DNA of 64,000 nucleotides, taken from contig NZ_CM001488.1 in NCBI RefSeq assembly GCF_000233695.2, positions 522,049-586,048 of the forward strand, written 5' to 3'. Shown here piece by piece: positions 41,629-60,111 of the stretch. Made by a program: the position numbers and the translations under genes. Positions within the stretch are counted from its first letter, which is position 1; the number at the start of each line of letters is the position of its first letter. Origin of the DNA: Desulfobacter postgatei 2ac9 (GTDB lineage: Bacteria > Desulfobacterota > Desulfobacteria > Desulfobacterales > Desulfobacteraceae). Under the pieces are notes generated by a model that made no database searches, was not told the DNA's origin, and was given only the letters and a program-made list of their open reading frames with translations.

Positions 41629-44052
41629 ATGGGCAAAAATACCCATAAAGATCAAAAGCCGTTCGTGGCCTGGTTCAAGGATTTGAGGATTGAGGACGTG
41701 CCCTTGGTGGGGGGCAAAAATGCCAGTCTGGGGGAGATGTACCGCAATTTGAGCCCCAAGGGAGTGAGTATTCCCAATGGATTTGCGGTCACCGCCCATG
41801 CCTATACCTATCTTTTGGAAAAATCCAAAGCCATGGACAGGGTTCGGGAGATATTGTCGGACCTGGACACCCATGACATGGACAACCTTCAGGAACGCGG
41901 GGCCAGGGTCAGGAACCTGATCCGCAGCCTGGAATTTCCAGGTGAGGTGTATAAGGAAATAGCCAGTGCCTACGCCAAATTGGAAGAGGAATACGGCAAG
42001 AACGTCGATGTGGCCGTACGTTCCTCGGCAACGGCCGAAGACCTGCCGGACGCCAGTTTTGCCGGACAGCAGGACACCTACCTGAACATTCGTGGCGTCG
42101 AAGATCTGGTGGACGCCTGCCACCGCTGTTTTGCCTCCCTGTTCACCAACCGGGCCATATCCTACCGCGAAGACAAGGGTTTTGACCATTTTTCCATTGC
42201 CCTGTCCATTGCCGTGCAAAAGATGGTCAGAAGCGATTTGGCCTCAAGCGGGGTTATGTTCAGCATTGATACGGAATCCGGCTTTCGGGACGCGGTGTTC
42301 ATCACCGGCGCCTACGGACTGGGGGAGAATGTGGTCCAGGGTGCGGTCAATCCGGATGAATGGTACGTGTTCAAACCCACGCTCAAGCAGGGCTTCAAAC
42401 CCATCATCATGAAAAAGACCGGTGGCAAGGCCATAAAAATGATCTACACCACGGATGCCAAACAGCCCACCAAGAACGTGGCTGTACCGGATGAGGACCG
42501 CCGCCGTCTGGTGCTCAGGGACGATGAGGTGGTGGAATTGGGCCGGATGGCCTGCGTTATTGAGGATCACTATTCGGCAAAGGCCGGATACCTTAAGCCC
42601 ATGGACATCGAATGGGCCAAGGACGGCGAGACCGGCAAGCTGTTCATCGTCCAGGCCCGGCCTGAGACCGTGCACACCTTGAAGGACCAGGCCGTTCTCA
42701 GGGAATTCCACCTCAAGGAGAAGGGCGAGGTGGTGTGCACCGGCCAGTCCGTAGGCGAACTCATCGGTCAGGGTGGGGTCAACGTCATAAAATCCGCTCA
42801 GATGATTTCCCGGTTCCAGAAGGGACAGGTGCTGGTCACGGACATGACAGACCCGGATTGGGAACCGGTGATGAAGATTGCCGGGGCCATCGTCACCAAC
42901 AGGGGCGGGCGCACCTGCCATGCGGCCATTGTCAGCCGTGAATTGGGCATTCCGTGTATCGTGGGCGCCGGTAACGCCACCACCCGGATGGAAACCGGCC
43001 AGGAAGTGACTGTGGACTGCTCCCAGGGCAGTGTCGGTTATGTGTATGCGGGACTTCTGCCCTACGAGGTCAAGGAGACGAATCTGGAAAATCTGCCCAA
43101 GACCAAAACCAAGATCATGTTGAACCTGGCCAGCCCGGAGCAGGCCTTTGAAAAGAGTTTTATCCCCAACCATGGGGTGGGCCTGGCCCGTGAGGAATTC
43201 ATCATCAATTCTTATATCAAGATTCATCCCCTGGCCCTTCTGAGGTACGATGAACTGGGAGACGAGATTTTAAAACGGGCCATAGCGGATATGACCATCG
43301 GCTACAACGACAAGAGCGAATATTTCGTGGACAAGCTGGCCGAGGGCGTGGGCATGCTGGCCGCAGCCTTTTATCCCAAACCGGTCATTGTCCGGCTTTC
43401 GGATTTCAAGACCAACGAATACGCCAACCTCATTGGTGGCACCCAGTTCGAGCCGGGCGAGGAGAATCCCATGATCGGCTGGCGCGGGGCCTCGCGTTAC
43501 TATGCCAAGGAATACAAGGAAGCTTTCGGCCTGGAATGCAAGGCCATGCTTAAAATCAGGAACGAGATGGGGCTTCATAACGTCCAGGTTATGATCCCCT
43601 TCTGCCGAACGCTGGACGAGGCCAGACAGGTGATTGATACCATGGCCGAATTCGGTCTATGCCAGGGTGAAGACGGGTTTAAGATTATCTGCATGTGCGA
43701 GATTCCGTCCAATGTAATCCTGGCCGAAGAATTTCTGGAGATTTTCGACGGTTTCTCCATCGGCACCAATGACCTGACACAATTGCTGCTCGGCGTGGAC
43801 CGGGATTCGTCCCTTGTCTCCCATGTATATGACGAGCGCAATCCGGCGGTGAAAAAGATGGTCCGCCAGGTGATTGAGATCGCCGTAAAAAAGGGCAAAT
43901 ACATTGGCATCTGCGGCCAGGCCCCCAGCGATTACCTGGAGTTCGCCGAATTTGTGGTGGAATGCGGCATCGAGACCATGTCCCTTAATCCGGACACTGT
44001 GATCAAGACGACCCTGGCCGTGGCCGAACTGGAAAAGAAATTGGGCATATAG
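41629..44052 (+). CDS. ppsA: phosphoenolpyruvate synthase
   Basis: 807 residues. N-terminal ATP-grasp domain (VGGKNASLGEMYRNL; VRSSATAEDLPDASFAGQQD), central phosphohistidine domain with GGRTCHAAIVSRELGIPCIV (His near 430), and C-terminal PEP/pyruvate barrel with GTNDLTQLLLGVDRD and CGQAPSDYLEFAEF. Converts pyruvate, ATP and water to PEP, AMP and phosphate. Length and motifs fit PpsA rather than pyruvate phosphate dikinase. Serves gluconeogenesis from acetyl-CoA and pyruvate, in line with the PFOR gene downstream. Confidence 0.95.
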   Translation: MGKNTHKDQKPFVAWFKDLRIEDVPLVGGKNASLGEMYRNLSPKGVSIPNGFAVTAHAYTYLLEKSKAMDRVREILSDLDTHDMDNLQERGARVRNLIRSLEFPGEVYKEIASAYAKLEEEYGKNVDVAVRSSATAEDLPDASFAGQQDTYLNIRGVEDLVDACHRCFASLFTNRAISYREDKGFDHFSIALSIAVQKMVRSDLASSGVMFSIDTESGFRDAVFITGAYGLGENVVQGAVNPDEWYVFKPTLKQGFKPIIMKKTGGKAIKMIYTTDAKQPTKNVAVPDEDRRRLVLRDDEVVELGRMACVIEDHYSAKAGYLKPMDIEWAKDGETGKLFIVQARPETVHTLKDQAVLREFHLKEKGEVVCTGQSVGELIGQGGVNVIKSAQMISRFQKGQVLVTDMTDPDWEPVMKIAGAIVTNRGGRTCHAAIVSRELGIPCIVGAGNATTRMETGQEVTVDCSQGSVGYVYAGLLPYEVKETNLENLPKTKTKIMLNLASPEQAFEKSFIPNHGVGLAREEFIINSYIKIHPLALLRYDELGDEILKRAIADMTIGYNDKSEYFVDKLAEGVGMLAAAFYPKPVIVRLSDFKTNEYANLIGGTQFEPGEENPMIGWRGASRYYAKEYKEAFGLECKAMLKIRNEMGLHNVQVMIPFCRTLDEARQVIDTMAEFGLCQGEDGFKIICMCEIPSNVILAEEFLEIFDGFSIGTNDLTQLLLGVDRDSSLVSHVYDERNPAVKKMVRQVIEIAVKKGKYIGICGQAPSDYLEFAEFVVECGIETMSLNPDTVIKTTLAVAELEKKLGI

Positions 44053-44094
44053 GAATCCCTCCCAGCGGTCTGGCATAGGGGCTTTGGATTGCAT

Positions 44095-44263
44095 GGGCAA
44101 ACATAAAAAATCCGATTTCCGCCAACCTGGCTGGAATCGGATTCTCTTTCAAGGCCAGAAGATTGCTCTGTTTCGATATATCGTCTATTGTTTCGATCAC
44201 ATGGTTGATGTCAAAATAGGTCTTGACCGGGTTTTTCAGTTGTGAGATATAAAAGCAGTTCAA
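44095..44263 (-). pseudogene. fragment of a methyl-accepting chemotaxis protein signalling domain
   Basis: Minus-strand reading INHVIETIDDISKQSNLLAL, then ENPIPARLAEIGF, aligns by eye with the highly conserved hairpin tip of chemoreceptors ([20 protein letters not shown]...GF). The conserved Ala/Glu face is corrupted and neither flanking heptads nor a start are present. A dead remnant in the 395-base gap between ppsA and the PFOR gene. Confidence 0.5.
44109..44143. terminator. hairpin downstream of ppsA
   Basis: AATCCGATTTCCGCCA (44109-44124) pairs with TGGCTGGAATCGGATT (44128-44143) with one mismatch and a three-base loop; six A's precede it and CTCTTTC follows. Likely terminates ppsA; on the minus strand it is followed by six T's. 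Confidence 0.65.
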
Positions 44264-44343
44264 TAAGCAATAGATTGCTTATTTATTAACTAAAAACGAC
44301 TTAAAAAGTTGGTTTGCGGCAAGTTCTACAAGCCGATTTTTTT

Positions 44344-44388
44344 GTTATTTTTGTTATATTGTTCAATTTTTTTGTTATATTGTTCAAT
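44344..44388. repeat. AT-rich 21-bp tandem repeat upstream of the PFOR gene
   Basis: GTTATATTGTTCAAT occurs at 44353-44367 and 44374-44388 (period 21), with a partial third copy at 44344. It lies 60-100 bases before the PFOR start, where promoter or regulator-binding elements are expected. Confidence 0.6.
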
Positions 44389-44441
44389 GGATTCTATATA
44401 TTTGGGTTAAATCTTATTTGCATTACCATTCAACGAGGTGA

Positions 44442-47966
<3,525 letters not shown>

Positions 47967-47998
47967 AGTTCAACAATAATTAAACCGGTAATGGTTCA

Positions 47999-48036
47999 GG
48001 GGCGAGGGCATTTAATGCGCTTCGCCCTTTTTTTTT
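47999..48036 (+). terminator. intrinsic terminator of the PFOR gene
   Basis: GGGGCGA (47999-48005) pairs with TTCGCCC (48021-48027), with an internal GC/GC pair, followed by a run of T's up to 48036. Confidence 0.8.
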
Positions 48037-48077
48037 AATGTCACAAGATGCCATTGGATGAACCGGAGAAAAAGCAC

Positions 48078-49814
48078 ATGAAAAAATATATAGCACTGAT
48101 CATTACAGCATTAATTACAGCATTAATTTTGTTGCCCTGCATCGCAATCAGCCAGGAAACCCCCGCTGCTTCTTCGGCATCAGGGGCTGCGGCCCAGACC
48201 CTGGGTAAAGCGGATGATTCGTCAACATTTGAGGCTGAAGCACAACAGAATACCCTTGAAATTCTCAGGTCTATTGTCAAAAGTAAAGCCACGCTGAAAC
48301 AACGTATGGATGAAAAGAAACAGGCCATGGACAAGGCCAGTTCCGAAACCGAAAGACAATATCTTAACGAAGAGCTTGCCGCACTGGATAAACAGATGGC
48401 GGATGCTGTAACCGATTTTGAAATGACCGCCACAGGGGTTGAAATTGGTCGGTTTGTGGCCAAGAAAAAAGAGCGGTTTGACTGGAAAGACGAACTTCTC
48501 TCCCTGGCCGAGCCCGGGATTATGGAGCTTAAGCGGCTGACGGTCAAAGCCAGGCATAAATCTAAACTCAATGATGAATTGGCCAATTACCAGGAGTTGC
48601 TTCCCGTGGCAATCAAGGCCAGAACCCGCGTTGAGTCTTTGCTCAGTCAGACCGAGGATCAGGCGCTGGTCACCGCCCTTAAAGATATCCTGCCCGAATA
48701 CAAAGGGATTGAAAGTCAGATAAAGAATAAGGTGGACCTTGTCCAGCTTAAACTTGAGGAAATCAAGCGTCAAGAGGCGTCGGTGATTGACAGCACCCAG
48801 GACTCTGTTAAAAGATTTTTCAGAACCCGCGGATTATACCTGTTTCTGGCTATCCTGGCCTGCATTGGTGTGGTGCTGTTAATCAAAGGTCTCTACCACA
48901 CCCTGATCCGCCTTGTGCCCGGATACAAACTGGAGTACCGCCCCTTTCATATACGGGTGCTTGAACTGGTGTACCGGCTCATGATGCTTGTATTGACGGT
49001 GCTGGCGGTCATGGCGGTCTTTTATTTTGTGGAGGACTGGGTGCTGCTTTCCCTGACCATTATTTTTATTATGGGCGTGGTGTGGGCCACTAAGTACACG
49101 TTGCCCATGTATCTGGACAAGAGTAAGCTGATGCTCAATGTCGGGGCGGTCAGGGAAGGCGAACGCATGATCTACCAGGGCGTTGCATGGCGGGTTAAAA
49201 ACATCAATTTTCATACCCTGCTGGAAAATCCTGATTTGGGCATTACACTGAGGATACCCATTATGGAACTTATCGGCAAAACATCCCGGAGATGTGATCC
49301 CCATGAATCCTGGTTCCCCTGCCGGAAAAACGACTGGGTAATCCTTTCCGACGGCACCCGGGGCGGTGTAACCCATTTAAGCCATGAAACCGTGGAGCTG
49401 GTATTAAGGGGCGGTGCGAAAAAGACCTATCAAACGGCTGATTTTTTGGCCATGACGCCTTTGAACCTTTCTGTGAATTTCCGAATTAAGGTGCCCTTCG
49501 GTATTGGTTATGGCCACCAGAAAGATGCCACTACAACGATTCCTGAACTTTTATCCGCATTTATCCAAGAACAGATTGAAAAAGAAGGGTATGCTGACGA
49601 CCTGCTGAACCTGAGGGTGGAATTTGCGCAAGCCGGGGCCTCATCCCTGGATCTGGTGGTCATTACCGATTTCAAAGGCAGTCAGGCACCCGTGTACAAC
49701 CGTTTGACACGAAGCATACAAAGATGGTGCGTTGACGCGGCTTCCCAATACAACTGGGATATTCCCTTTCCCCAGATTGCGGTTCATCTGCCAGGAGACA
49801 GTGTGATGTCTTGA
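48078..49814 (+). CDS. MscS-like mechanosensitive channel-related membrane protein
   Basis: 578 residues with a signal peptide (about 5-24, ending CIAIS), a long periplasmic coiled-coil-rich region (about 50-255), three closely spaced helices (about 262-345), and a C-terminal cytoplasmic part of MscS type (VILSDGTRGGVTHLSHETVE; FRIKVPFGIGYGHQKDATTT). The pore helix is weakly conserved, so gating by tension is an inference. ATG at 48078 with GGAG 9 bases upstream gives the cleanest signal peptide. The next gene starts 92 bases after its stop. Confidence 0.75.
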   Translation: MKKYIALIITALITALILLPCIAISQETPAASSASGAAAQTLGKADDSSTFEAEAQQNTLEILRSIVKSKATLKQRMDEKKQAMDKASSETERQYLNEELAALDKQMADAVTDFEMTATGVEIGRFVAKKKERFDWKDELLSLAEPGIMELKRLTVKARHKSKLNDELANYQELLPVAIKARTRVESLLSQTEDQALVTALKDILPEYKGIESQIKNKVDLVQLKLEEIKRQEASVIDSTQDSVKRFFRTRGLYLFLAILACIGVVLLIKGLYHTLIRLVPGYKLEYRPFHIRVLELVYRLMMLVLTVLAVMAVFYFVEDWVLLSLTIIFIMGVVWATKYTLPMYLDKSKLMLNVGAVREGERMIYQGVAWRVKNINFHTLLENPDLGITLRIPIMELIGKTSRRCDPHESWFPCRKNDWVILSDGTRGGVTHLSHETVELVLRGGAKKTYQTADFLAMTPLNLSVNFRIKVPFGIGYGHQKDATTTIPELLSAFIQEQIEKEGYADDLLNLRVEFAQAGASSLDLVVITDFKGSQAPVYNRLTRSIQRWCVDAASQYNWDIPFPQIAVHLPGDSVMS

Positions 49815-49846
49815 CGAGAATTGTCTATTTAAGTATGCTATCCGCC

Positions 49847-49876
49847 TATTTTGACAGCCTATATTTTGACAGCCTA
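49847..49876. repeat. 15-bp perfect tandem duplication before the GHMP gene
   Basis: TATTTTGACAGCCTA occurs twice without a gap (49847-49861, 49862-49876), 30 bases upstream of the GHMP-protein start. It contains TTGACA twice, so it may duplicate a -35 element. Confidence 0.7.
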
Positions 49877-49906
49877 ATTAACGATTTTCAAGCAAAGGGG
49901 AACCGA

Positions 49907-51121
49907 ATGGAGAGTCAGACTTCAAAGCAACAAAAACAGAAGGTGGAAATTGACATTGTAGGCGGCCGATTTGATAAAGTGACCACGGTGTTGGAGGAGT
50001 TTGAGCCTGGGGACGAAAATTTTATTCACTCCTATGAGAAGATGGGTCTTGAACCACGACAGGTTGGAGATGTTGAAAGCAGGGAAGTAGATGTCAAGGT
50101 GCCGGCAAGGCTTCATCTGAACGTGTTTGATATGAACCGGTTTAATTTGAACCGCCCCGGTGGTGGCGGCCTTGGTGTGAGTATCGGCGTCTATTTTTAT
50201 GCAAAGGTGAAGTCGATTCCCGAGCCGGTTATTCGTACCACAGGCGAACGCCAACTTATCATGGCGCATTACGGACATATTTTTAAAAAATTATTGGGGT
50301 ATGACGGTGGGTTTGAAATAGAACTTCAAGACCATAAGCGCCGTCATGTGGGGCTTGGCTCTTCCATCGGTTCCATGTGTGCCGTGTGTATCGGTATGAA
50401 TGAAGTCCTGGGCAGGCCTTTTTATGGGTGGGAACTGAGGCGGATTATGGGATTTCACTCCTGCGAGGAGAGCCCTGTGAATGAACAATATCTGCTTCCG
50501 GCCTTTGAAACCGGTATCGGTGCCATGGTCAGTATCAACGGTGGCTGGGTGGTTGCCAGTGATGACCTGGTGCTGGTTCAGCGTGTGGCACTGCCGGATA
50601 CCAAGGTGCTGATGTTCATCCCGGAGGTTGATACCCTGGAGGACGAATTCCAAGGAAAGGAGACCGCTGCCGAATCCGAAGTCGAGCTTTTAATGAGACG
50701 GGCAAGAACCCTTGATGCGCTTCAGGTTGGCGCTAAGGCACAGATTGTCTTGTTGGACATGATACCCGCAATGATTCGAAATGATCTTAAAAAGATGGGC
50801 GATGCCCTTTTTGAACTGACGCACATGGGATCCAAACGGGCCGAGTGCGAACAGCACGGTGCTTTTGGAACGCCCATATACAGCTATATTAATGCCTTTC
50901 GGGGGATGGGGATTGAGGTTGCCGGCATGAGTTCCGTGGGACCCACGGTTTTTGCATTGACCCGAAATCAGGATGCATATGATCGGGCGCTGAAATACCT
51001 TAAAGCAAAAAACATTTCAGACACGCGCATTATAGAAACCGAAGTTGACAACATAGGCGGTACGATTACGGAAAACGGTGTTGAAAGAACCTTTATAAAT
51101 GATACCTGGCTTCAAGGATAA
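49907..51121 (+). CDS. beta-RFAP-synthase-like GHMP-superfamily protein
   Basis: 404 residues. PARLHLNVFDMNRFNLNRPG followed by GGGLGVSIG matches the N-terminal signature of beta-ribofuranosylaminobenzene 5'-phosphate synthases; HVGLGSSIGSMCAV is the GHMP phosphate loop; AGMSSVGPTVFAL is the C-terminal motif. In methanopterin synthesis the family joins PRPP and an aminobenzoate or hydroxybenzoate with loss of CO2. The ATG at 49907 is chosen because CAAAGGGG lies 6 bases upstream; an N-terminal ~65-residue extension is unusual. Heads a four-gene cluster with very short gaps (5, 12 and 23 bases). Actual substrate unknown. Confidence 0.75.
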   Translation: MESQTSKQQKQKVEIDIVGGRFDKVTTVLEEFEPGDENFIHSYEKMGLEPRQVGDVESREVDVKVPARLHLNVFDMNRFNLNRPGGGGLGVSIGVYFYAKVKSIPEPVIRTTGERQLIMAHYGHIFKKLLGYDGGFEIELQDHKRRHVGLGSSIGSMCAVCIGMNEVLGRPFYGWELRRIMGFHSCEESPVNEQYLLPAFETGIGAMVSINGGWVVASDDLVLVQRVALPDTKVLMFIPEVDTLEDEFQGKETAAESEVELLMRRARTLDALQVGAKAQIVLLDMIPAMIRNDLKKMGDALFELTHMGSKRAECEQHGAFGTPIYSYINAFRGMGIEVAGMSSVGPTVFALTRNQDAYDRALKYLKAKNISDTRIIETEVDNIGGTITENGVERTFINDTWLQG

Positions 51122-51126
51122 TTCTT

Positions 51127-51822
51127 ATGACAAGCGGTTACAAAGCCAAAATTTGCGGCACCACCAATATGGAAGATGCCGAAATGGCTGCCCGTGAAGG
51201 GGCTGATTTTTTTGGCGTGGTGGTGGAGGTCGATTTTTCCCCGAGGTCTTTGACCATTGAAGCGGCCAAACCTCTCTTTTCGTCTCCCCTCATTCCGGCG
51301 GTGGCCCTGGTTTACAATATGGCATCAACGCGTGTTGAATCGCTTATTCAGCAACTGAACCCATTTGCCGTACAATTTTTAAGTTTGGCAGAAACCTCTT
51401 TTGTCACATATTTAAAGAAGACTTATCCGAAGGTTGAAATCTGGCAATCGCTCCATTTGCCCCGGGCGGGTGAAGCGGTGGATCTGGAAGATTTTCAAAA
51501 GACGGCTCAAACCTCTGTGACAGCCGGTGTCGACGCCCTTCTTTTCGATACCGCCGCCTTGTCCAAAGGAGCGATGAAATTTGGCGGCACGGGCGTTACT
51601 TCGGATTGGGACATCGTTAAGGAACTGATGGATGCGATGCGGGGTACGTTGCCTATCTGGCTGGCCGGCGGGATCAATCCGGACAATGTAGGAGAGGCCA
51701 TTGACAGGATCAACCCCTACGGCATTGATTTATGCTCCGGCGTGGAAGCGACCCGCGGAAAGAAAGATGCGGCAAAGCTAAGGTCTCTTATGACAACCAT
51801 TCGCGGTAAGCATTCAAAATAG
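51127..51822 (+). CDS. TrpF-like (phosphoribosylanthranilate isomerase) protein
   Basis: 231 residues of a TIM barrel. KICGTTNMEDA carries the catalytic Cys of TrpF, VDALLFDTAA the catalytic Asp, and LAGGINPDNVGEAI with GIDLCSGVEATRGKKD the phosphate-binding end, so the active site looks intact. TrpF performs an Amadori rearrangement of N-phosphoribosyl-anthranilate. No other trp gene is present and the sequence differs from usual TrpF after the second strand (VVEVDFSPRSLTIEAA), so it probably acts on a related ribosyl-phosphate within this cluster. Confidence 0.8.
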   Translation: MTSGYKAKICGTTNMEDAEMAAREGADFFGVVVEVDFSPRSLTIEAAKPLFSSPLIPAVALVYNMASTRVESLIQQLNPFAVQFLSLAETSFVTYLKKTYPKVEIWQSLHLPRAGEAVDLEDFQKTAQTSVTAGVDALLFDTAALSKGAMKFGGTGVTSDWDIVKELMDAMRGTLPIWLAGGINPDNVGEAIDRINPYGIDLCSGVEATRGKKDAAKLRSLMTTIRGKHSK

Positions 51823-51834
51823 GAGAATTCATTC

Positions 51835-52866
51835 GTGAAAGCAGCAGTAGTTTATGGAAAAGATGATATTCGCATTGAAGAATATCCCACACCAACGGCA
51901 AGCGCCGGAGAAGTTATTGTAAAAACAAAAGTGTCCGGCATTTGCGCCACTGACATTAAGACTTTGCTCGGTCAAGGGCTTCCCAAGGACTTGCCGACCA
52001 TTTTGGGGCATGAGGTGGTGGGTGAGATATTTGAAATAGGGAAGGGCGTTACGGCGTATCAACCCGGTGACCGGGTGGCGGTTTATCCCATTGCTGTTTG
52101 CGGGCAGTGTTATTACTGCCGCCAGGGGCGGCATAATTTATGTGAGCACGAATTCGGGTTGGCCCACGGTATTGAAGGTGGTTTTGCCGAATATGTGCGT
52201 CTTCCTAAAGAGATTGTGAACATTGGCGGGGTCATAAAGATTCCGGATGATGTGCCGTTTGATAAAGCGGTTTTATCCGAGCCCTTATCATGCGCCATGG
52301 CGTCCCTGTCAACCTGTAAGGTGGGACCTGACCAGGTTGTAGTGATTTTGGGCGCCGGCCCCATGGGGCTCATGCACCTGAAACTGGCAAAGTGGATGGG
52401 TGCTGTTGTGATTGTTGTCGATTTACTGGAAAACCGGTTGGCGATTGCTAAAGATATGGGCGCAGACCATTGCATCAATCCAACGCAGACAAATCACATT
52501 GAAGAAATAATGAAGCTGACCGACAAGAAAGGTGCACAAGCCGTTATTGCATCCCTGGGTATCCCGTCGGTTATTGAGGAAAACTTACAGCTGACCAGAA
52601 AAGGCGGCACATTTAATATTTTCGGCGGGCCTCCGGCAGGCCATACCATATCGGTGGATCCAAGATGGCTTCATTACTGCGAAATAAATTTAACCGGGAC
52701 CTTTGCGGCATCACCCAGCGATTTCAAAAAGAGCCTTGAGCTTATTATAAACAATGAAATCACCGTCGATGATCTTGTTACGGACCGGTTTACCCTTGAT
52801 ACCTTTTTAGAAGCCGTAGAGTGTGCCAAGAACCAGCAAATGATTCGTGGAATTGTCGAATTTTAA
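51835..52866 (+). CDS. zinc-dependent MDR alcohol/polyol dehydrogenase
   Basis: 343 residues. Catalytic zinc region SGICATDIK and GHEVVGEI; structural zinc loop CGQCYYCRQGRHNLC with all four Cys; Rossmann motif GAGPMGLM. Resembles threonine, sorbitol and galactitol-phosphate dehydrogenases. Starts with GTG at 51835, preceded by AGGAG at 9 bases. Should oxidise a secondary alcohol or reduce a ketone in the pathway of this cluster with NAD(P). Confidence 0.88.
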   Translation: MKAAVVYGKDDIRIEEYPTPTASAGEVIVKTKVSGICATDIKTLLGQGLPKDLPTILGHEVVGEIFEIGKGVTAYQPGDRVAVYPIAVCGQCYYCRQGRHNLCEHEFGLAHGIEGGFAEYVRLPKEIVNIGGVIKIPDDVPFDKAVLSEPLSCAMASLSTCKVGPDQVVVILGAGPMGLMHLKLAKWMGAVVIVVDLLENRLAIAKDMGADHCINPTQTNHIEEIMKLTDKKGAQAVIASLGIPSVIEENLQLTRKGGTFNIFGGPPAGHTISVDPRWLHYCEINLTGTFAASPSDFKKSLELIINNEITVDDLVTDRFTLDTFLEAVECAKNQQMIRGIVEF

Positions 52867-52889
52867 TATACGAAAAGGAATGTCATCTT

Positions 52890-53699
52890 ATGGACGGAAA
52901 AGAAAGACGGCTGAGAAAAATTATTAATAAAAAAACGGGACGTTCTTTGGTCCTTGCGGTTGATCACGGCATGGCGCTTGGTGCCATGACCGGTATTGTG
53001 GATATTGCCGGTACGATTCGAACGCTGGACGCTACCAACAAGGTTGATTGCTGGCTTATGACCAAAGGCATATATACCCATGCGTTTGACCCGTCAGGAG
53101 ATCCGGGGGTTATCCTTCGCGCCAGCGGCGGGGCGACCATTGCCGGGCCGGAGTTGACCCGGGAGGGTCAAACCGCAGATGCCGAAGAGGCGTTGCGGCT
53201 TGGCGTGGATGCCATGGCAACCACCGCGTTTGTGGGCTCGGTATATGAGCATGAAACCCTGATCAGTATGGCCCGGATGGCAACGGAATGCCGAAAATGG
53301 GATATGCCGCTTTTAGGGGTGATTGGTCTGGGAAAAACCAATGAAGACAAAAAAAAAGATCCCAAATTCATTGCACTGGGTGCAAGGGTTGGTGCGGAGC
53401 ACGGGGCGGATATCATCAAGACCTATTATACGGAAACCGATTTTGAGAAGGTTGTGGCCGGATGCCCTGTGCCGGTGATGATTGCCGGCGGGCCCAAATG
53501 TGAAACGGATCTTGACACGTTAAATATGATATATGGTGCGCTCCAGGGCGGTGCCAAAGGCATCGTCATGGGAAGAAACGTGTGGCAAAGCCCGCACCCC
53601 ACCGCATTGCTGTCAGCGGTCTATGGCTTGATACATGAAGGGATGAATGTGAAAGAAGCTGCTGATCTGCTTGCCCATGAGGTTGCATTAGACCATTAA
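52890..53699 (+). CDS. DhnA/LsrF-type class I aldolase
   Basis: 269 residues of a DhnA-type TIM barrel: LVLAVDHGMALGAMTG, the Schiff-base Lys in DIIKTYYTETDF, and GGAKGIVMGRNVWQSPHP. The family includes archaeal class I FBP aldolase, ADH (2-amino-3,7-dideoxy-hept-6-ulosonate) synthase and LsrF, which all act on phosphorylated sugars. ATG at 52890 with AAGGAA upstream. Last gene of the cluster and followed by a strong terminator. Confidence 0.85.
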   Translation: MDGKERRLRKIINKKTGRSLVLAVDHGMALGAMTGIVDIAGTIRTLDATNKVDCWLMTKGIYTHAFDPSGDPGVILRASGGATIAGPELTREGQTADAEEALRLGVDAMATTAFVGSVYEHETLISMARMATECRKWDMPLLGVIGLGKTNEDKKKDPKFIALGARVGAEHGADIIKTYYTETDFEKVVAGCPVPVMIAGGPKCETDLDTLNMIYGALQGGAKGIVMGRNVWQSPHPTALLSAVYGLIHEGMNVKEAADLLAHEVALDH

Positions 53700-53708
53700 A
53701 AGACGCGA

Positions 53709-53757
53709 AAAAAAGCGTACATTCGAGAAGTTCATTTGTCTGAATGTACGCTTTTTT
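53709..53757. terminator. bidirectional terminator between aldolase and CsgG-like genes
   Basis: AAAAAAGCGTACATTC (53709-53724) and its exact inverse (53742-53757) enclose a 17-base loop, giving U-tracts on both strands for the convergent genes. Confidence 0.85.
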
Positions 53758-53792
53758 AAGTTGTTGGAATTGTTATCTTTTACATCAAATAA

Positions 53793-54854
53793 TTACTGCA
53801 AATACTTCTGCATATATCTTTTTTCTATCAATTTGAATGAGTTTACATCCACCTGCCCGCCCGGCGCATAAAATTGGACAAGGTCATTTTTGTATGGGAT
53901 TTTTTGGGCACTGCTGAATGTAAATGTCCGGGAACCGTCCTTGGTGATGATGACATAATCATAAACTCCGGAGGCAGCGTTGTAATTGCGTTGGGTCATG
54001 ACACCTTCAAGAACATTGGATGCCGCCATTGCCGTTGCTCCGCCCTGCACAGCCATGGTCCCGCCTGTGCCAAGCCCGCCCGCCACCGATTGTGCTTTAT
54101 AAGATTTGACCGCTCTGATCATATTGTTCATGGAATCGGTGAATGCAGCGATAATCACTTTGCCCTCGGGTGTTCTGCCATAGGCCCCTGCCGCGCCCCC
54201 GGCATGATGTCCAAACATTCCGCCCACAAGCGAGAAATCCGTATTTCTGGCACTGCCTTCAGCCGCAGCCAGCTGAACCCCGGAACGGTTTTCAATGAGC
54301 GTCAGCATGGTACTGGCATCGCTGGTTTTGAATCCACCGGCCACGGCACCGGCCACTGACCCGAGAAGCGCTCCCACAACAGCCCTGCCCCCACTGGTAT
54401 CACGGGCGCTGAAAGTGATGCTCGGCGTCATGGTATAGTCTGCCGCCACCATCTGTCCCTTTCCAAAATTCGACCCACTGCGCATTTCACCGGACTGCAT
54501 CAGCGCACGCTCCTCCATCATCTGGTTCATCGCCTTGCCGCGTTCAACCACCACAAAGCAATTGGACTGCTGGGCAAGGAGGCGAAGCACGGGCACGGTG
54601 GACGGCAAGCGCAGGTCTCTTGTCAAATAGTGATACCAGGGTTCATTTTTATCTTCATAAATGGCTAAAGTGCCCAAAGAAGCCGTGCAACGCTCAAGAC
54701 CCTGGTTTGCGTTCTGGGCCGTTGACCCGCCGGCAGCGCCTGTGGCGGTTGTTTTTGCGCCACTGTCGCCGGTTGACATTGAAGACATACACCCTGCCGT
54801 CATAAAGAATAGAATACAGGCTGCCACTAAAATTAAATTTGTTTTCCTGTTCAT
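53793..54854 (-). CDS. CsgG/HfaB-like outer-membrane lipoprotein
   Basis: 353 residues. Lipoprotein signal with lipobox MTAGC (Cys22), then a CsgG-type domain (LLAQQSNCFVVVERGKAMNQ; MVAADYTMTPSITFSA) and a Gly/Ala-rich stretch (ALLGSVAGAVAGGF; GHHAGGAAGAYG). CsgG proteins form outer-membrane export pores; no curli-like substrate genes are present. Monocistronic with GGAAGAA before the ATG. Confidence 0.75.
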   Translation of the reverse strand: MNRKTNLILVAACILFFMTAGCMSSMSTGDSGAKTTATGAAGGSTAQNANQGLERCTASLGTLAIYEDKNEPWYHYLTRDLRLPSTVPVLRLLAQQSNCFVVVERGKAMNQMMEERALMQSGEMRSGSNFGKGQMVAADYTMTPSITFSARDTSGGRAVVGALLGSVAGAVAGGFKTSDASTMLTLIENRSGVQLAAAEGSARNTDFSLVGGMFGHHAGGAAGAYGRTPEGKVIIAAFTDSMNNMIRAVKSYKAQSVAGGLGTGGTMAVQGGATAMAASNVLEGVMTQRNYNAASGVYDYVIITKDGSRTFTFSSAQKIPYKNDLVQFYAPGGQVDVNSFKLIEKRYMQKYLQ

Positions 54855-55033
54855 GCAAATTCTTCCTTATAAATTATTTGTATAAAAAATTGAAAGACCC
54901 TAAAAAATCAATTTTCTTTCATGAAAACGAACGAATGAAGGACCTTATAAATAATAGTATTGATAGTATGATAGCGTCTTTTGTTTTGTCAAGAATTAAG
55001 ACAGGATAGCAATTACAAGCTGTGAAAATACCC

Positions 55034-55114
55034 TTGACAGAAAGGGCCTTCGTCTTTATTGTACTCGAAAGTCATTTTCTGACTATCTGGTCATTTATTT
55101 AACCGATATAGTCA
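55034..55114 (+). promoter_or_regulatory. promoter and imperfect operator of the RND efflux operon
   Basis: In the 320-base divergent gap 54855-55174. TTGACA (55034-55039), 17 bases, then TATTGT (55057-55062). Downstream, TGACTATCTGGT pairs with ACCGATATAGTCA (55080-55114), an imperfect palindrome of the size bound by TetR proteins, placed between the promoter and the tetR gene. Nothing else was seen in the gap. Confidence 0.6.
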
Positions 55115-55174
55115 GGAGATGTTTTTGTTTTTCCCCACAGGAATGATGGCGGGGGCAACCCAAGGAAACATTCA

Positions 55175-55777
55175 ATGAATTTGCCCACAAGAAGAAAAGA
55201 GATGATGAACCGCCTGCTCAAGGAGCAGGTGGTAAAAACCGTGCTGGCAATGATCCATGAAGGGACACCCGTTACCATGGACAAGGTGGCGTTCAGGTGC
55301 GGTGTGTCCAAAGGAACCGTGTACAATTATTTTAAAAACAAAAAAGACCTGTTGAACACTGTCCATGAGGCTGTGATCATTCCCATTAAAAAGGAATCAT
55401 GCAAAATATTTGAAAAAAAGATTCCACCCATGGAAAAAATATACGGGTTCGTGGAGAATGTGTTTAATTTTCAGAAAGAGTACCCACTTTATTTTAAATT
55501 TATCCAGAGCCAGCGTTCGGCAGCTGCTGCCGTCACCGAGCGCATGGATCTCATCATCATCCCCCTGGTTAACATCTGCCGGGAAGGCATGCACCAGGGG
55601 CAGTTTATGGATGCGGACCCCTATGTCATGGCAGCCATGATATTCGGTACGGTGGTGGGTCCTTTGGAGTCCCTGACTTACCGGGAGGATGCGCTCCAGG
55701 ATTTGGAAAAACTCAAACAGGAAATAGTCCGCTTTCTGGACAAAAGTATACTTAAGGAACAGGAGAGATCGTTATGA
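55175..55777 (+). CDS. TetR/AcrR-family regulator of the RND operon
   Basis: 200 residues. HTH segment VTMDKVAFRCGVSKGTVYNY (about 33-52) then FKNKKDLL, followed by a helical ligand-binding domain. Its stop overlaps the adaptor ATG by 4 bases. Distinct from the TetR at 23546 in both operator and C-terminal domain. Likely represses this operon via the palindrome at 55080. Confidence 0.9.
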   Translation: MNLPTRRKEMMNRLLKEQVVKTVLAMIHEGTPVTMDKVAFRCGVSKGTVYNYFKNKKDLLNTVHEAVIIPIKKESCKIFEKKIPPMEKIYGFVENVFNFQKEYPLYFKFIQSQRSAAAAVTERMDLIIIPLVNICREGMHQGQFMDADPYVMAAMIFGTVVGPLESLTYREDALQDLEKLKQEIVRFLDKSILKEQERSL

Positions 55778-56967
55778 AGCGTTTTTTGCTTGGTTTTATC
55801 ACGGCCGTACTCATTGGCGGCGGATACTTGTATTTTACGGGACAGCTTTCGCTGCCGTGGGCAGGGGCAAAAAAAAGCCAGGCGTCACCCCAGCCCCAGC
55901 AGACACATGCTCAGTCTGCCCAGGCCCGTCCCCCGGTTGAAGTGGCGGTTTATACGGTCAAGCCCCAGGAAGTTGTATTGACTAAGGATCTGGCCGGCAG
56001 AACGTCTGCATACCAGGTGGCTGAAATTCGTCCCCAGGTAACAGGCATCATACTTAAACGGATGTTTACCCAGGGCAGTTTGGTTAACAAAGGGCAGCAG
56101 CTTTATCAAATTGATCCCTCCACCTACAAGGCCGCATATGAATCTGCAGCCGCGAGTCTGGTTCGCGCCGAGGCCGACGTCAAGGCAGCGGAGCCCAAAC
56201 TTGCCCGGTACAGCCGGTTGGTTAAAATGGGCGGTGTCAGCCGCCAGGTTTATGACGATACCGTGGCAGCCCTGGCCCAGGCCAAGGCTGACGTGGCTGT
56301 TGCCAAAGCAAATCTGGCCACCGCAAAAATCAATCTGGACTATACCAAGGTGTTTTCGCCTATATCCGGGCGCATCGGCAAGTCATCGGTGACCGAAGGC
56401 GCTTTGGTGACGGCCAATCAAACTACCGCCCTCGCTGTGGTGCAGAATCTGGACCAGATTTATGTAGACGTAAACCAGTCCAGCGAGGAGCTCATGGCGC
56501 TTAAGAAAGGCCTGAACAATTCTGAACAGAACTCTATGGTCAGCCTGTTCATCGGAAAGGAGAGCACCCCCTATGACCTGAAGGGCAAACTGCTGTTCTC
56601 CGATGCCACGGTGGACCAGGGCACCGGGATGGTCCAGTTGAGGATACTGTTCCCCAACCCTGAAAAGGAACTTCTGCCGGGCCTGTTTGTCCGTGCCAGG
56701 GTAGAGCAGTCCCGCCAGGATAAAGCCATTGCCGTTCCCCAGCAGGCTGTGGTGCGCAATGCGGACGGGTCTGTTTCCGTGTGGGTTGTGAATGAGCAAA
56801 ATACGGTTGAATATCAGCCGGTTGAAGTCTCTCAGGCAGTCAAGGACCAGTGGGTGGTCTCTGCCGGCCTCTCCCCCGGTGACCGGGTGGTGGTTGAGGG
56901 GTTGCAGAAAATCAGCCCCCAGGCCAAGGTTACGACCGTGGAATACAAAGCATCCACCAACTCATGA
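55774..56967 (+). CDS. RND efflux periplasmic adaptor (AcrA/MexA type)
   Basis: 397 residues: N-terminal anchor (about 4-24), lipoyl halves (LAGRTSAYQVAEIRPQVTGI; YTKVFSPISGRIGKSSVTEG), a helical hairpin between them, barrel and membrane-proximal domains (PGLFVRARVEQSRQDKAIAV). No lipobox Cys, so it is held by the anchor. Links the inner-membrane pump to the outer-membrane channel encoded downstream. Confidence 0.93.
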   Translation: MKRFLLGFITAVLIGGGYLYFTGQLSLPWAGAKKSQASPQPQQTHAQSAQARPPVEVAVYTVKPQEVVLTKDLAGRTSAYQVAEIRPQVTGIILKRMFTQGSLVNKGQQLYQIDPSTYKAAYESAAASLVRAEADVKAAEPKLARYSRLVKMGGVSRQVYDDTVAALAQAKADVAVAKANLATAKINLDYTKVFSPISGRIGKSSVTEGALVTANQTTALAVVQNLDQIYVDVNQSSEELMALKKGLNNSEQNSMVSLFIGKESTPYDLKGKLLFSDATVDQGTGMVQLRILFPNPEKELLPGLFVRARVEQSRQDKAIAVPQQAVVRNADGSVSVWVVNEQNTVEYQPVEVSQAVKDQWVVSAGLSPGDRVVVEGLQKISPQAKVTTVEYKASTNS

Positions 56968-56982
56968 TAGCAGGATAAAAAC

Positions 56983-59900
56983 ATGTCTCGTTTTTTTATA
57001 GATCGGCCCATCTTTGCATGGGTTATTGCAATTGTCATCATGCTGTCCGGGCTGTTTGCCGTGCTCACTCTGCCGGTGGAACAATATCCCAAGATTGCCC
57101 CGCCCAGCATTACCATTTCAACCATGTACCCAGGCGCCTCCGCCCAGGTGGTGGAAGACAGTGTCACCCAGGTCATTGAGCAGGCCCTGACCGGCATTGA
57201 TTATTTAAGATATTTCTCTTCATCCAGTGAATCCAGCGGCCAGCTCACCATCAGCCTGACCTTTGAACCGGAAGCGGATCCGGATATTGCCCAGGTTCAG
57301 GTGCAGAATAAAATATCAAAAGTGGAAAGTCTGCTGCCCCAGGAAGTTCAGCAGCAGGGCCTGACCGTCCAGAAGGCCTCTGACAGCTTTCTTTTGTTGG
57401 TCGGATTGTACTCCGAAGACGGCACCTATAGGGGTGATGATCTCTCCGATTATCTTAAATCCAACATGGCGGATCCGGTTTCCCGCGTACAGGGGGTGGG
57501 CGATTTAACCGTGTTCGGCTCCCAGTACGCCATGCGGATATGGGTTAATCCGGAAAAACTCAACGCGTTTAGCCTGATGCCCTCGGATGTTGTTTCTGCC
57601 ATCCAGGCGCGAAACGCCGACGTCTCATCCGGTCAGCTTGGCGGTGCCCCGGCCATCAAAGGCCAGCAGATCAATGCCGTTGTGACGGCCCAGTCCAAAC
57701 TGCAGACGGTGGAAGATTTTGAAAAGGTTTTGGTCAAGGTCAACCCGGACGGATCCCAGGTCCGGGTGAAGGATGTGGCCAAAGTGGAAAAGGGACCTGA
57801 AAGATACGGGTTCAACACCCGATATAACCGGAATCCTGCCGCAGCCATGGCTATCAGTCTTGCCACCGGCGCCAATGCCCTTGATACGGCCGAACGGGTC
57901 AAAGATAAAGTTAAGGAATTAAGCCAGTTCCTGCCTCCGGGACTGGAAGTTATTTTTCCCTATGATACCACGCCCTTTGTCCGGCTCTCCATCGAAGAAG
58001 TTGTCAAGACCCTGTTAGAAGCCATTGTGCTGGTGTTCCTGGTCATGTATCTGTTTTTGCAAAGCTTTCGGGCAACGTTAATCCCAACCATTGCGGTGCC
58101 GGTGGTATTGCTCGGCACTTTTGCCGTTTTGTCGGCATTTGGGTTCAGTATCAATACATTGTCCATGTTTGCCATGGTCCTTGCCATCGGGCTTCTGGTG
58201 GATGATGCCATTGTTGTGGTTGAAAACGTGGAGCGGGTGATGTCCGAAACCGGTAAATCCCCCAAAGAAGCCACCCGGGAGTCCATGGATCAGATCACCG
58301 GCGCCCTTGTGGGTATTGCCATGGTGCTGTCTGCGGTGTTTATTCCCATGGCGTTTTTCTCCGGCTCCACCGGTGCCATCTATCGTCAGTTTTCACTGAC
58401 CCTGGTATCGGCTATGGCGCTTTCAGTGCTTGTGGCCCTGGTTTTGACCCCTGCGCTTTGCTCCACACTGCTCAAACCTGTGAAAAAAGGGCACCATGAA
58501 CATAAACGCGGCTTTTTCGCCTGGTTCAACAAAGGCTTTGACCTCAGCAAGGCCATGTATAAATCCAGTGTCAGGTATTCAGCCTCCCGGGCGGTAAGAT
58601 TCCTGGTCGTCTATGCACTGATCATTGTGGGACTGATTTACATTTTTAAAGGGATCCCCACAGGATTTTTGCCTGACGAAGATCAGGGCATGATGATGAC
58701 CATCATCTCCGCCCCGCCGGGTGCGACCATGGAACGGACCCAGAAGGCCGTAAATAAGGTGGAAGACTACTTTCTGGACCAGGAGAAAGGTAATGTAAAA
58801 GGTCTGTTCACCGTAGTCGGCTACAGCCATTCCGGCCGGGGCCAGAATGTGGCCATGGGCTTTATGAACCTTACGGACTGGTCCCTGCGTCACCGGCCCG
58901 ACCAGAAAGCCGCCGCAATTGCAGGCCGGGCCATGGCCAGTATGTTCAGCATCAAGGACGCATCCGTCTATGCCTTTATTCCGCCGGCCATCCTGGCCCT
59001 GGGCGATGCCACCGGGTTTGACTTTGAGCTGGTGGATCGTGGGGGATTAGGTCATACTGCATTGATGAACGCCAGAAACCAGATGCTGGGAATGGCTGCT
59101 CAGAATCCCAAGCTGGTCGGTGTCCGCCCCAACGGATTGTCTGATGTGCCGCAGTACAAGCTGCACATTGATTATGAAAAGGCCGAAGCTTTGGGCGTGA
59201 CCACGGCCAATATTACCAATGTGCTCCAGACCGCCTGGGGCTCATCCTATGTCAATGATTTCATGGACGGCAACCGGCTCAAAAAAGTATATATCCAGGG
59301 GGATCAAGGATCGCGCATGCTCCCCGAAGATATTGACAGATGGCATGTGCGGAATAACCAGGGCACCATGGTGCCGTTCTCTTCATTCACCTATGGCGAG
59401 TGGACCTATGGATCTCCAAGGTTGGAACGGTATAACGGCACCTCTTCGGTGGAGATATTAGGCGCACCGGCCCCGGGGGTTTCCTCGGGTGAAGCCATGA
59501 CTATTGTTGAGGATATGGCCCAGAAACTGCCCAAGGGAATTTTTCTGGAATGGACGGGCCTCTCCTATGAAGAGCGGATGGCCGGTTCCCAGAGCGGAAT
59601 GCTTTACGCCATATCCCTTTTGTTTGTGTTCCTGTGTCTGGCCGCCCTTTATGAGTCCTGGTCCATTCCATTTTCGGTCATGCTGGTTGTGCCTTTGGGT
59701 ATTATCGGATCCGTGGTGGCCACCAAGTTGGCGGGATTAAGCAATGACGTCTATTTTCAGATTGCGCTGCTTACCACGGTGGGGCTTGCAGCCAAAAATG
59801 CCATTCTCATTGTCGAGTTTGCAAAAAGTCTGTACGAAAGCGGGATTGAACTGGTTCAATCGGCAGTCATAGCCGCAGAGCTCAGGCTTCGACCCATCCT

Positions 59901-60111
59901 GATGACCTCCTTTGCGTTTATTCTGGGTGTGACACCGCTTGCCATTTCCGACGGTGCGGGTTCTGCCAGCCAGAACGCCATCGGCATCGGTGTTATCGGC
60001 GGCATGCTGGCAGCCACAACCCTGGCGATTATCTTTGTTCCTCTCTTTTTCGTCCTCATTGAACGAGGCAGTGAAAAGAAAAAACAGGCCAAAATAGGCC
60101 AAGGAGAATGA
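56983..60111 (+). CDS. RND multidrug efflux pump (AcrB/MexB, HAE1 type)
   Basis: 1042 residues with 12 transmembrane helices and two large periplasmic loops. Starts [20 protein letters not shown] as in AcrB. Proton-relay Asp pair in [17 protein letters not shown] (about 407-408) and the Lys in [17 protein letters not shown]. Proton-driven export of hydrophobic compounds. 15 bases after the adaptor stop. Confidence 0.95.

What the first reader, a model, noticed from the sequence alone, without database searches (positions are those of the whole stretch)
49907..53699. Four-gene cluster of ribosyl- and sugar-phosphate enzymes with no known pathway context
A beta-RFAP-synthase-like GHMP protein, a TrpF-like isomerase with intact catalytic Cys and Asp, a Zn-alcohol dehydrogenase and a DhnA-type aldolase are packed with gaps of 5, 12 and 23 bases and end at a strong terminator. 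Beta-RFAP synthase and TrpF both handle aryl-ribosyl-phosphates derived from PRPP; the aldolase family acts on phosphorylated sugars. No trp, folate or methanopterin gene is nearby. Together they suggest an undescribed small-molecule or cofactor pathway that starts from an aryl or amino riboside phosphate.
Basis: inference. Interest (0 to 1): 0.72.

Follow-up and report, generated by a model that had tools for sequence, protein, structure and literature searches.

The report
Undescribed four-gene ribosyl-enzyme operon
Four enzyme genes that travel together in some sulfate-reducing bacteria look like a pathway, which I did not find described, that joins a ribose unit to an aromatic acid and then takes the sugar apart again; if so, cells have a new way to remodel aromatic molecules.

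Summary
In detail: four genes, gaps of 5, 12 and 23 bases, strong terminator, in a Desulfobacter genome of one contig. A trpE-G-D-C-F run with its own trpF lies elsewhere. All 18 genomes found with the window-type GHMP gene carry the following genes in the same order; contigs end inside the ADH gene in 2, and flanks differ between families. One genome carries TrpF-ADH-DhnA followed by an authentic beta-RFAP synthase instead. The GHMP protein is a relative of RFAP synthase (hhalign 99.5%), far below the family cut-off, with changed 5'-phosphate contacts. The DhnA protein groups with the CoA thiolase LsrF (100/100). The tetrahydromethanopterin marker MCH is absent from the 10 cluster or trio genomes tested. 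Best reading: aryl acid + PRPP gives an aryl C-riboside phosphate; the TrpF homologue opens it to a 1-aryl-1-deoxyribulose phosphate; the ADH oxidises C4, giving an aryl analogue of LsrF's substrate; the LsrF homologue releases arylacetyl-CoA and DHAP. Linkage and families are shown; substrates and reactions are inferred. No activity was tested.

The parts
49907..51121 (+). RFAP-synthase-class GHMP protein, 404 aa, predicted decarboxylating aryl C-ribosyltransferase (step 1)
   Evidence: hhalign to an alignment of six RFAP-synthase-family proteins 99.5%, E 6.8e-23 over 306 columns; R68, H147, S152 and D75 conserved; NF040726 E 3.5e-22 but under cut-off
51127..51822 (+). TrpF-like isomerase, 231 aa, predicted Amadori-type ring opening (step 2)
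   Evidence: PRAI 93.6 bits; C10, D141, R40, E207 aligned with TmTrpF C7, D126, R36, E184 (TmTrpF numbers partly recalled)
51835..52866 (+). Zinc-dependent MDR dehydrogenase, 343 aa, predicted NAD-linked oxidation of C4-OH (step 3)
   Evidence: ADH_N + ADH_zinc_N; C37, H59, E60, C89, C92, C95, C103, D196 invariant in 7 members
52890..53699 (+). LsrF-side DhnA aldolase/thiolase, 269 aa, predicted CoA thiolysis to arylacetyl-CoA + DHAP (step 4)
   Evidence: tree split 100/100 with LsrF against ADHS/FBPA; Schiff-base Lys = K177
53709..53757 (+). intrinsic terminator
   Evidence: z -5.58
49811..49839 (+). promoter-like site TTGACG-17-TATGCT, 67 bases before the first ATG; candidate only
   Evidence: 6 sites found in the region against 5.8 expected by chance

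Best explanation
The operon encodes a four-step pathway, in gene order. (1) The RFAP-synthase-class protein joins the ribose of PRPP to an aromatic carboxylic acid with loss of CO2 and PPi, giving an aryl C-riboside 5-phosphate. (2) The TrpF homologue opens the furanose by an Amadori-type (vinylogous) rearrangement to 1-aryl-1-deoxy-ribulose 5-phosphate, Ar-CH2-CO-CHOH-CHOH-CH2OP. (3) The NAD-linked zinc dehydrogenase oxidises the C4 hydroxyl, giving Ar-CH2-CO-CHOH-CO-CH2OP, which is LsrF's substrate (3-hydroxy-5-phosphonooxypentane-2,4-dione) with an aryl group on C1. (4) The LsrF homologue cleaves it with CoA to arylacetyl-CoA and DHAP. Net: ArCOOH becomes ArCH2CO-CoA, with two carbons taken from ribose. 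Shown here: gene linkage, families, conserved residues, independence from trp and methanopterin. Inferred: every reaction and the identity of Ar (a para-amino aryl acid such as 4-aminobenzoate is the default guess).
For: Co-occurrence: 18 of 18 genomes with the window-type GHMP gene, 2 of them cut by contig ends. DhnA of this type (E <= 1e-100) in 4 of 395 phylum genomes, each with the cluster or trio, and in 0 of 8 Desulfobacter genomes lacking the cluster, 2 of these 56 and 74% complete (the same query matched the own genome). G339: TrpF-ADH-DhnA (56, 64, 77% identical) followed in the same direction, about 34 bases on, by a beta-RFAP synthase scoring 351 against a cut-off of 328. GHMP protein keeps pyrophosphate-site residues of ForT. 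A parallel: the methanopterin clusters of Phyllobacterium and Azospirillum hold, a few genes from their RFAP synthase, a HisA-family protein (PF00977; the Amadori-isomerase fold family), so an isomerase of this kind near an RFAPS-class gene is not unique to this operon. DhnA groups with LsrF 100/100; LsrF gives DHAP and acetyl-CoA (PMC7828210, passages). LsrF-side DhnA genes lie next to a Zn-ADH gene in L117 and L119, 2 of 8 loci examined, and a DhnA+Zn-dehydrogenase+FGGY-kinase operon is annotated in Rhizobium sp. X9. D196 conserved at the NAD site. Weak aryl-CoA hints: G134's RFAP synthase (355.7 bits) lies between a thiolase and a GNAT gene, 4-base gaps; IOR genes lie 1.2 kb from the cluster in G684 and divergent from the LsrF-like/ADH pair in G265.
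Against: No biochemistry. The GHMP protein is far under the RFAP cut-off (79 against 328) and lacks ForT's R135 and T106 5'-phosphate contacts; MTH R26 has no exact counterpart, R83 is one residue off. The RFAP swap is seen in one genome only (the 12 genomes searched added none). The tree program warned that long branches meet at the join between the two sides. In that tree the Rhizobium X9 DhnA falls on the side away from LsrF, so its operon supports the ADH/DhnA pairing but not thiolysis; and 6 of the 8 other DhnA loci showed no Zn-ADH neighbour. The 7 nearest RFAPS-class relatives outside the cluster (37-42%) have no TrpF, ADH or DhnA match in the stretches fetched. No ligase, transporter or user of the product is seen with the unit. 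The direction of the ADH is a guess from D196. The HisA-family protein in methanopterin clusters equally suits the methanopterin-arm rival.
Confidence: 0.4

Rival explanations
1. Methanopterin-like arm: the ADH reduces the C2 ketone of the TrpF product to a 1-aryl-1-deoxyribitol 5-phosphate, as in the linker of methanopterin, and the DhnA protein does something else (for example an aldol step on the arm). The product would be part of an unknown pterin-like or other cofactor.
For: RFAP synthase starts the non-pterin arm of tetrahydromethanopterin, and about 7 of its proteins were still unknown in 2011 (PMC3087415, passages). That methanopterin carries an opened, reduced ribityl arm is recalled. 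G339 has an authentic RFAP synthase next to the trio. The methanopterin clusters of Phyllobacterium and Azospirillum hold a HisA-family protein that could open the ring there.
Against: MCH was found in 0 of 10 cluster or trio genomes; no TrpF, zinc dehydrogenase or DhnA-type aldolase is annotated in the two methanopterin clusters looked at (PLSDB gene tables are incomplete); leaves the LsrF-side enzyme without a role; D196 favours NAD.
Confidence: 0.2
2. N-linked variant: the GHMP protein makes an N-ribosyl arylamine 5-phosphate, the TrpF homologue performs a classical Amadori rearrangement, and oxidation plus thiolysis yield an N-arylglycyl-CoA.
For: TrpF active-site residues, including R40/E207 (TmTrpF R36/E184), are intact; TrpF's known reaction is on an N-riboside.
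Against: Known RFAPS-class enzymes form C-C bonds (PMC8183095, passages), and the protein beside the trio in G339 is an authentic RFAP synthase.
Confidence: 0.12
3. Plain sugar catabolism: the GHMP protein is a kinase, TrpF-like an aldose-ketose isomerase, ADH oxidises and the LsrF homologue cleaves, as in AI-2 or deoxysugar breakdown.
For: GHMP fold; a kinase + Zn-dehydrogenase + DhnA operon exists in Rhizobium sp. X9.
Against: RFAP synthase model E 3.5e-22 against homoserine kinase 1.9e-6; hhalign 99.5% to RFAP-synthase-family proteins (no kinase profile was compared); an authentic RFAP synthase beside the trio in G339; no transporter or regulator seen in the unit.
Confidence: 0.12
4. Aromatic-precursor aldolase: the DhnA protein is an ADH-synthase or GriI-type enzyme that makes an aromatic amine for the other three.
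For: Same superfamily; many genomes of the class have true ADH synthase (35 of 60 over the cut-off).
Against: 194.8 bits against a cut-off of 299.45; on the LsrF side of the tree, 100/100; no dehydroquinate-synthase-II-like partner noticed in the window's ORFs by eye.
Confidence: 0.05
5. Second tryptophan TrpF with unrelated neighbours.
For: TrpF family, catalytic residues intact, whereas the trp-run TrpF lacks the usual Asp motif.
Against: trpE-G-D-C-F run with its own trpF elsewhere; five cluster-free Desulfobacter genomes have one TrpF each, with that same kind of motif; four-gene linkage in 18 of 18.
Confidence: 0.02

Closest known systems
beta-RFAP synthase (MptG, NF040726) and C-nucleoside synthase ForT
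   Same: Homology over 306 columns; pyrophosphate-loop His, PARL Arg and the DMN Asp conserved
   Different: 79 bits against 328; ForT R135 and T106 not kept; an N-terminal extension of about 57 residues and a CEES insertion; organism lacks the H4MPT marker MCH
TrpF, phosphoribosylanthranilate isomerase
   Same: Catalytic Cys and Asp, Arg/Glu pair
   Different: Not in the trp run; 132.8 bits on NF002298 against 193.4 for the trp-run TrpF (cut-off 215, which neither reaches); present only with the cluster in the Desulfobacter genomes tested
LsrF, 3-hydroxy-5-phosphonooxypentane-2,4-dione thiolase
   Same: Same side of the family tree (100/100), Schiff-base Lys
   Different: 256.6 bits against 297; no lsrK or lsrG noticed by eye in the window; separated from the LsrF group by a long branch
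Bacterial tetrahydromethanopterin gene clusters (Azospirillum, Phyllobacterium, G263)
   Same: Contain an RFAP-synthase-family gene; the first two also a HisA-family protein
   Different: Carry mch, fae, ATP-grasp and formylmethanofuran-related genes; no TrpF, zinc dehydrogenase or DhnA-type gene annotated there

Membership tests
beta-RFAP synthase (NF040726 equivalog) | Score over the curated cut-off | tested here: not met
   79 against 328 bits
beta-RFAP synthase / ForT class | Pyrophosphate-binding loop with His, and Arg of PARL | tested here: met
   Columns of ForT R19, H99 and S104 hold R, H and S in all 13 sequences aligned; window R68, H147, S152
beta-RFAP synthase / ForT class | 5'-phosphate contacts (ForT R135, T106, S139) | tested here: not met
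   F183 and I154 at R135 and T106; T202 at S139 is conservative
beta-RFAP synthase | pABA-site D19 and R26 (M. thermautotrophicus numbering) | tested here: inconclusive
   D75 matches D19; R83 is one residue off R26 (register read from the mutagenesis primer quoted)
beta-RFAP synthase | Makes RFAP from PRPP and pABA | not testable with these tools
   needs enzyme assay
TrpF | Catalytic Cys and Asp | tested here: met
   C10, D141
TrpF (NCBIfam) | Score over an NCBIfam TrpF cut-off | tested here: not met
   best 132.8 against 215; not decisive, since the trp-run TrpF also fails every cut-off (best 193.4 against 215)
TrpF of tryptophan synthesis | Sole or trp-operon TrpF of the genome | tested here: not met
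   trpE-G-D-C-F run elsewhere (only trpF confirmed by profile, the others by eye)
LsrF thiolase | Groups with LsrF in the family tree | tested here: met
   21 of 34 rows on one side, 100/100, with a long-branch warning
LsrF thiolase | Score over NF006081 cut-off | tested here: not met
   256.6 against 297 bits
LsrF thiolase | Schiff-base lysine (K203) | tested here: met
   K177 aligns with the Lys that is Ala in 4p2v; the number K203 and its role are recalled
LsrF thiolase | CoA-dependent cleavage | not testable with these tools
   needs enzyme assay
ADH synthase (TIGR01949) | Score over cut-off and position in tree | tested here: not met
   194.8 against 299.45; other side of tree
Tetrahydromethanopterin pathway | Methenyl-H4MPT cyclohydrolase in the genome | tested here: not met
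   0 of 10 cluster or trio genomes; found in control G263 and 3 control archaea
Zn-dependent MDR dehydrogenase | Catalytic and structural Zn ligands | tested here: met
   C37, H59, E60 and C89, C92, C95, C103 invariant in 7 members; ligand roles recalled

The most novel reading that the evidence does not exclude
A pathway of a kind not described: PRPP-driven homologation of an aryl acid to an arylacetyl-CoA, in which the ribosyl group of a C-riboside is opened by a TrpF homologue, oxidised, and cut by an LsrF-type thiolase, so that two ribose carbons stay on the ring and DHAP is returned. It would be a route to arylacetyl-CoA independent of aromatic amino acids, and would give RFAP-synthase-class enzymes in methanopterin-free bacteria a role.
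Probability: 0.3. Interest if true: 0.85.

Novelty: new variant of a known kind. Interest (0 to 1): 0.66.

Why it matters
RFAP synthases and their C-nucleoside relatives are known for methanopterin and antibiotic synthesis (recalled, and PMC8183095, passages). RFAP homologues in organisms that use folate are an open annotation problem; for haloarchaea, PMC8305020 judges one unlikely to make RFAP (passages). This cluster offers a testable function in sulfate reducers, some of them in culture (Desulfobacter latus, Desulfonema magnum), with three ready-made partner enzymes and a concrete predicted product. If the chemistry is right it would join two fields that do not meet now, C-riboside synthesis and AI-2 catabolism. 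The ring-opening step would also be a candidate model for the ring opening of the methanopterin arm, for which the HisA-family protein in methanopterin clusters is a candidate worth testing in parallel.

Tried and rejected
The conclusion rests on sequence and profile comparison only.

First DhnA tree had 6 rows translated in a wrong frame (LsrF_Ent_L080, ADHS_L089, L091, L093, L096, L112); discarded and rebuilt with corrected rows. Of the 8 'third group' loci fetched, 6 went into the tree; L115 and L118 were left out because my ORF picker did not show their DhnA frame. Of the 23 distinct TIGR01949 loci handed out (L088-L110 and on), 8 went into the tree.

Considered and rejected: tryptophan paralogue; methanopterin cluster; ADH-synthase or GriI-type aromatic synthesis; control by a known RNA family (no Rfam match in 44000-60000). 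The promoter-like site is no better than chance.

Could not do: search beyond Desulfobacterota. The one genome-contig scan used exact peptide patterns and found 5 loci, all near relatives; the genome search reached only relatives of the window or of G339. A wider distribution is therefore unknown. The plasmid search with the GHMP protein found only distant RFAPS-family hits, 13 records.

Papers: searches. No held paper combines ribofuranosylaminobenzene with phosphoribosylanthranilate isomerase or Desulfobacter postgatei with that isomerase. One search (RFAP synthase + sulfate-reducing) gave 2 papers, of which I saw passages. The LsrF thiolase paper itself is not held; its result is cited through PMC7828210. 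All papers cited were seen as passages only.

Full report
Setting. The window is part of a 3.97-Mb genome in one contig (window = 522049-586048).

Not tryptophan, not methanopterin. The genome has a second, higher-scoring TrpF (136 against 93 bits). It is the last gene of a contiguous run whose proteins I read by eye as trpE, trpG, trpD, trpC and trpF (only trpF confirmed by profile; trpA and trpB were not looked for). Fifteen related genomes were scanned with the TrpF family. The five Desulfobacter genomes without the cluster that were included (G003, G007, G009, G010, G014) each have one TrpF, with the same kind of motif as the trp-run enzyme. The tetrahydromethanopterin marker MCH was found in 0 of 10 cluster or trio genomes (one of them, G519, only 64% complete), not in G241, and in the control genome G263.

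One unit. The window-type GHMP gene was found in 11 of 59 relatives, all in the genus (11 of its 19 genomes); in 9 of 291 genomes of the order, 5 of them new (a tenth, weak match, G487, is an RFAP-synthase-family protein at 221 bits near a gene with a methylene-H4MPT-dehydrogenase domain); and in 3 of 395 genomes of the phylum, 2 of them new (its 12 other matches are the 7 subfamily-2, 2 remote and 3 RFAP-synthase cases below). Together these are 18 genomes. I fetched the context of all. In 16, all four genes follow in the same order and strand; in G006 and G593 the contig ends inside the ADH gene. In G018 the GHMP gene is frameshifted. Identity to the window falls to 67% (GHMP), 54% (TrpFL), 66% (ADH) and 72% (DhnA). 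Flanking genes differ between families: gyrB upstream in Desulfonema magnum, a DnaJ-domain gene in PL23a_bin.76, CODH/ACS genes in G519 and a CoA-binding protein in G183. The genes evolve under purifying selection (dN/dS 0.04-0.24 in 12 within-genus comparisons). DhnA genes of this type occur in 4 of 395 phylum genomes, each with the cluster or trio, and in 0 of 8 cluster-free Desulfobacter genomes, two of them incomplete. So GHMP, TrpFL (in the five tested) and DhnA are gained or lost together.

The key variant. In G339 the trio TrpFL-ADH-DhnA (56, 64, 77% identical) is followed in the same direction, about 34 bases on, by a protein that passes the RFAP-synthase equivalog cut-off (351 against 328 bits), and no window-type GHMP gene was found in that genome. 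An authentic RFAP synthase thus appears to replace the window-type protein. This is the best single clue to its chemistry. It is one genome; a search of the 12 held genomes of that order added no other. Two remote pairs, G241 and G328, also have a GHMP relative (27-28%) next to a TrpF relative (28%), the latter without the catalytic Cys.

The GHMP protein. Its profile matches that of six RFAP-synthase-family proteins over 306 columns (hhalign 99.5%, E 6.8e-23); two of the six (G339, G134) pass the equivalog cut-off and one (G263) only the subfamily cut-off, and three were not scanned. It keeps the Arg, His and Ser that bind pyrophosphate in ForT (PMC8183095, passages), and the Asp that affects pABA binding in M. 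thermautotrophicus RFAP synthase (PMC6787355, passages). The pABA-site Arg is shifted by one residue. ForT's 5'-phosphate contacts R135 and T106 are not kept, and a CEES-containing insertion lies there. So it is a relative of the class with an altered sugar-phosphate or acceptor site, and I do not file it as an RFAP synthase. Its next relatives (7 genomes, 37-42%) lie, 7 of 7, with a sigma-54 response regulator, a histidine kinase and a 181-aa protein without a Pfam match, and in 6 of 7 with UbiX-like or UbiD genes; AMP-ligase and HAD-phosphatase genes occur in some (profiles run on L053 only, the others by tblastn from it). That again points to aromatic acids.

The TrpF homologue. C10, D141, R40 and E207 align with TmTrpF C7, D126, R36 and E184 (residue roles partly from PMC9088769, passages, partly recalled). 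The known reaction is ring opening and Amadori rearrangement of an N-riboside. On a para-aminoaryl C-riboside the same acid-base machinery could work through the vinylogous amine; this is my inference. A parallel turned up late: the methanopterin clusters of Phyllobacterium and Azospirillum hold, a few genes from their RFAP synthase, a HisA-family protein (PF00977, 68 and 75 bits; below the cut-off of every NCBIfam model). HisA and TrpF run the same rearrangement. This fits an isomerase acting after an RFAPS-class enzyme, and it fits the methanopterin-arm rival as well.

The ADH and DhnA proteins. The ADH has the usual zinc ligands and an Asp (D196) at the position that favours NAD (roles recalled). 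The DhnA protein falls on the LsrF side of a 34-sequence tree with support 100/100, apart from the LsrF group itself by a long branch, against ADH synthases and FBP aldolases; the program warned that long branches meet at that join. The lysine that is mutated in LsrF structure 4p2v is conserved. LsrF cleaves phosphorylated AI-2 to DHAP and acetyl-CoA (PMC7828210, passages).

Mechanism. Putting the steps in gene order gives a formal match: the C4-oxidised 1-aryl-1-deoxyribulose 5-phosphate is LsrF's substrate with an aryl group on C1. Zn-ADH genes next to LsrF-side DhnA genes in two other loci of eight (L117, L119), and a Zn-dehydrogenase next to a DhnA-family gene in Rhizobium sp. X9, support an ADH-then-DhnA order. 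The X9 protein itself groups with the other side of the tree. Weak hints towards aryl-CoA: a thiolase gene directly before the RFAP synthase of G134, a MAG listed with 8% contamination, and indolepyruvate ferredoxin oxidoreductase genes 1.2 kb from the cluster and convergent with it in G684, and divergent from the LsrF-like/ADH pair in G265. The IOR scores in G684 are just under their cut-offs (alpha 649.8 against 650.9, beta 205.7 against 227).

Confidence. That this is a real, conserved operon of linked function: near certain. That step 1 is RFAPS-like ribosylation and step 2 an Amadori-type opening: about 0.6. That the whole oxidative, thiolytic route is right: about 0.4. Nothing biochemical was tested, the substrate is unknown, and the survey covers Desulfobacterota only.

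Noticed in passing
L048-L054: A related GHMP/RFAPS-class subfamily (7 of 7 loci) lies with a sigma-54 response regulator, a histidine kinase and a 181-aa protein without a Pfam match; 6 of 7 also have UbiX-like or UbiD genes: a possible aromatic carboxylation system.
   Followed up: partly
L078:14530-15246 and L079:14376-15083: The methanopterin clusters of Phyllobacterium and Azospirillum hold a HisA-family protein a few genes from the RFAP synthase: a candidate for the unassigned ring-opening of the methanopterin arm.
   Followed up: partly
L060:7498-10334: In a genome without the MCH marker, an authentic RFAP synthase is packed between a thiolase and a GNAT acetyltransferase (4-base gaps), near 2-hydroxyglutaryl-CoA-dehydratase-D and BcrAD-type genes.
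   Followed up: partly
L015:9577-10254: The trp-run TrpF of Desulfobacter lacks the usual LDT motif around the catalytic Asp (it reads CLAEYGKGILPGGN); the same kind of motif stands in cluster-free species that have no other TrpF.
   Followed up: partly
L023:9457-10667: The GHMP gene of G018 is split by a frameshift (real or sequencing error) while the three following genes match over their length.
   Followed up: no
53793-54854: The CsgG-domain gene after the cluster has no match in 6 of 6 Desulfobacter genomes that lack the cluster (no positive control in that call).
   Followed up: no
49814-49907: In L017 several kilobases lie between the 48048-49814 homologue and the GHMP gene, with ORFs that look by eye like rubrerythrin, YebC, RlmE and RadA; in the window the two genes are about 93 bases apart.
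   Followed up: no
L117, L119, L114: LsrF-like genes in Desulfobacterales pair with Zn-ADH (L117, L119) or with a 700-aa bifunctional aldolase/short-chain dehydrogenase (L114 by profile, others by eye), apparently other LsrF-type sugar pathways.
   Followed up: partly
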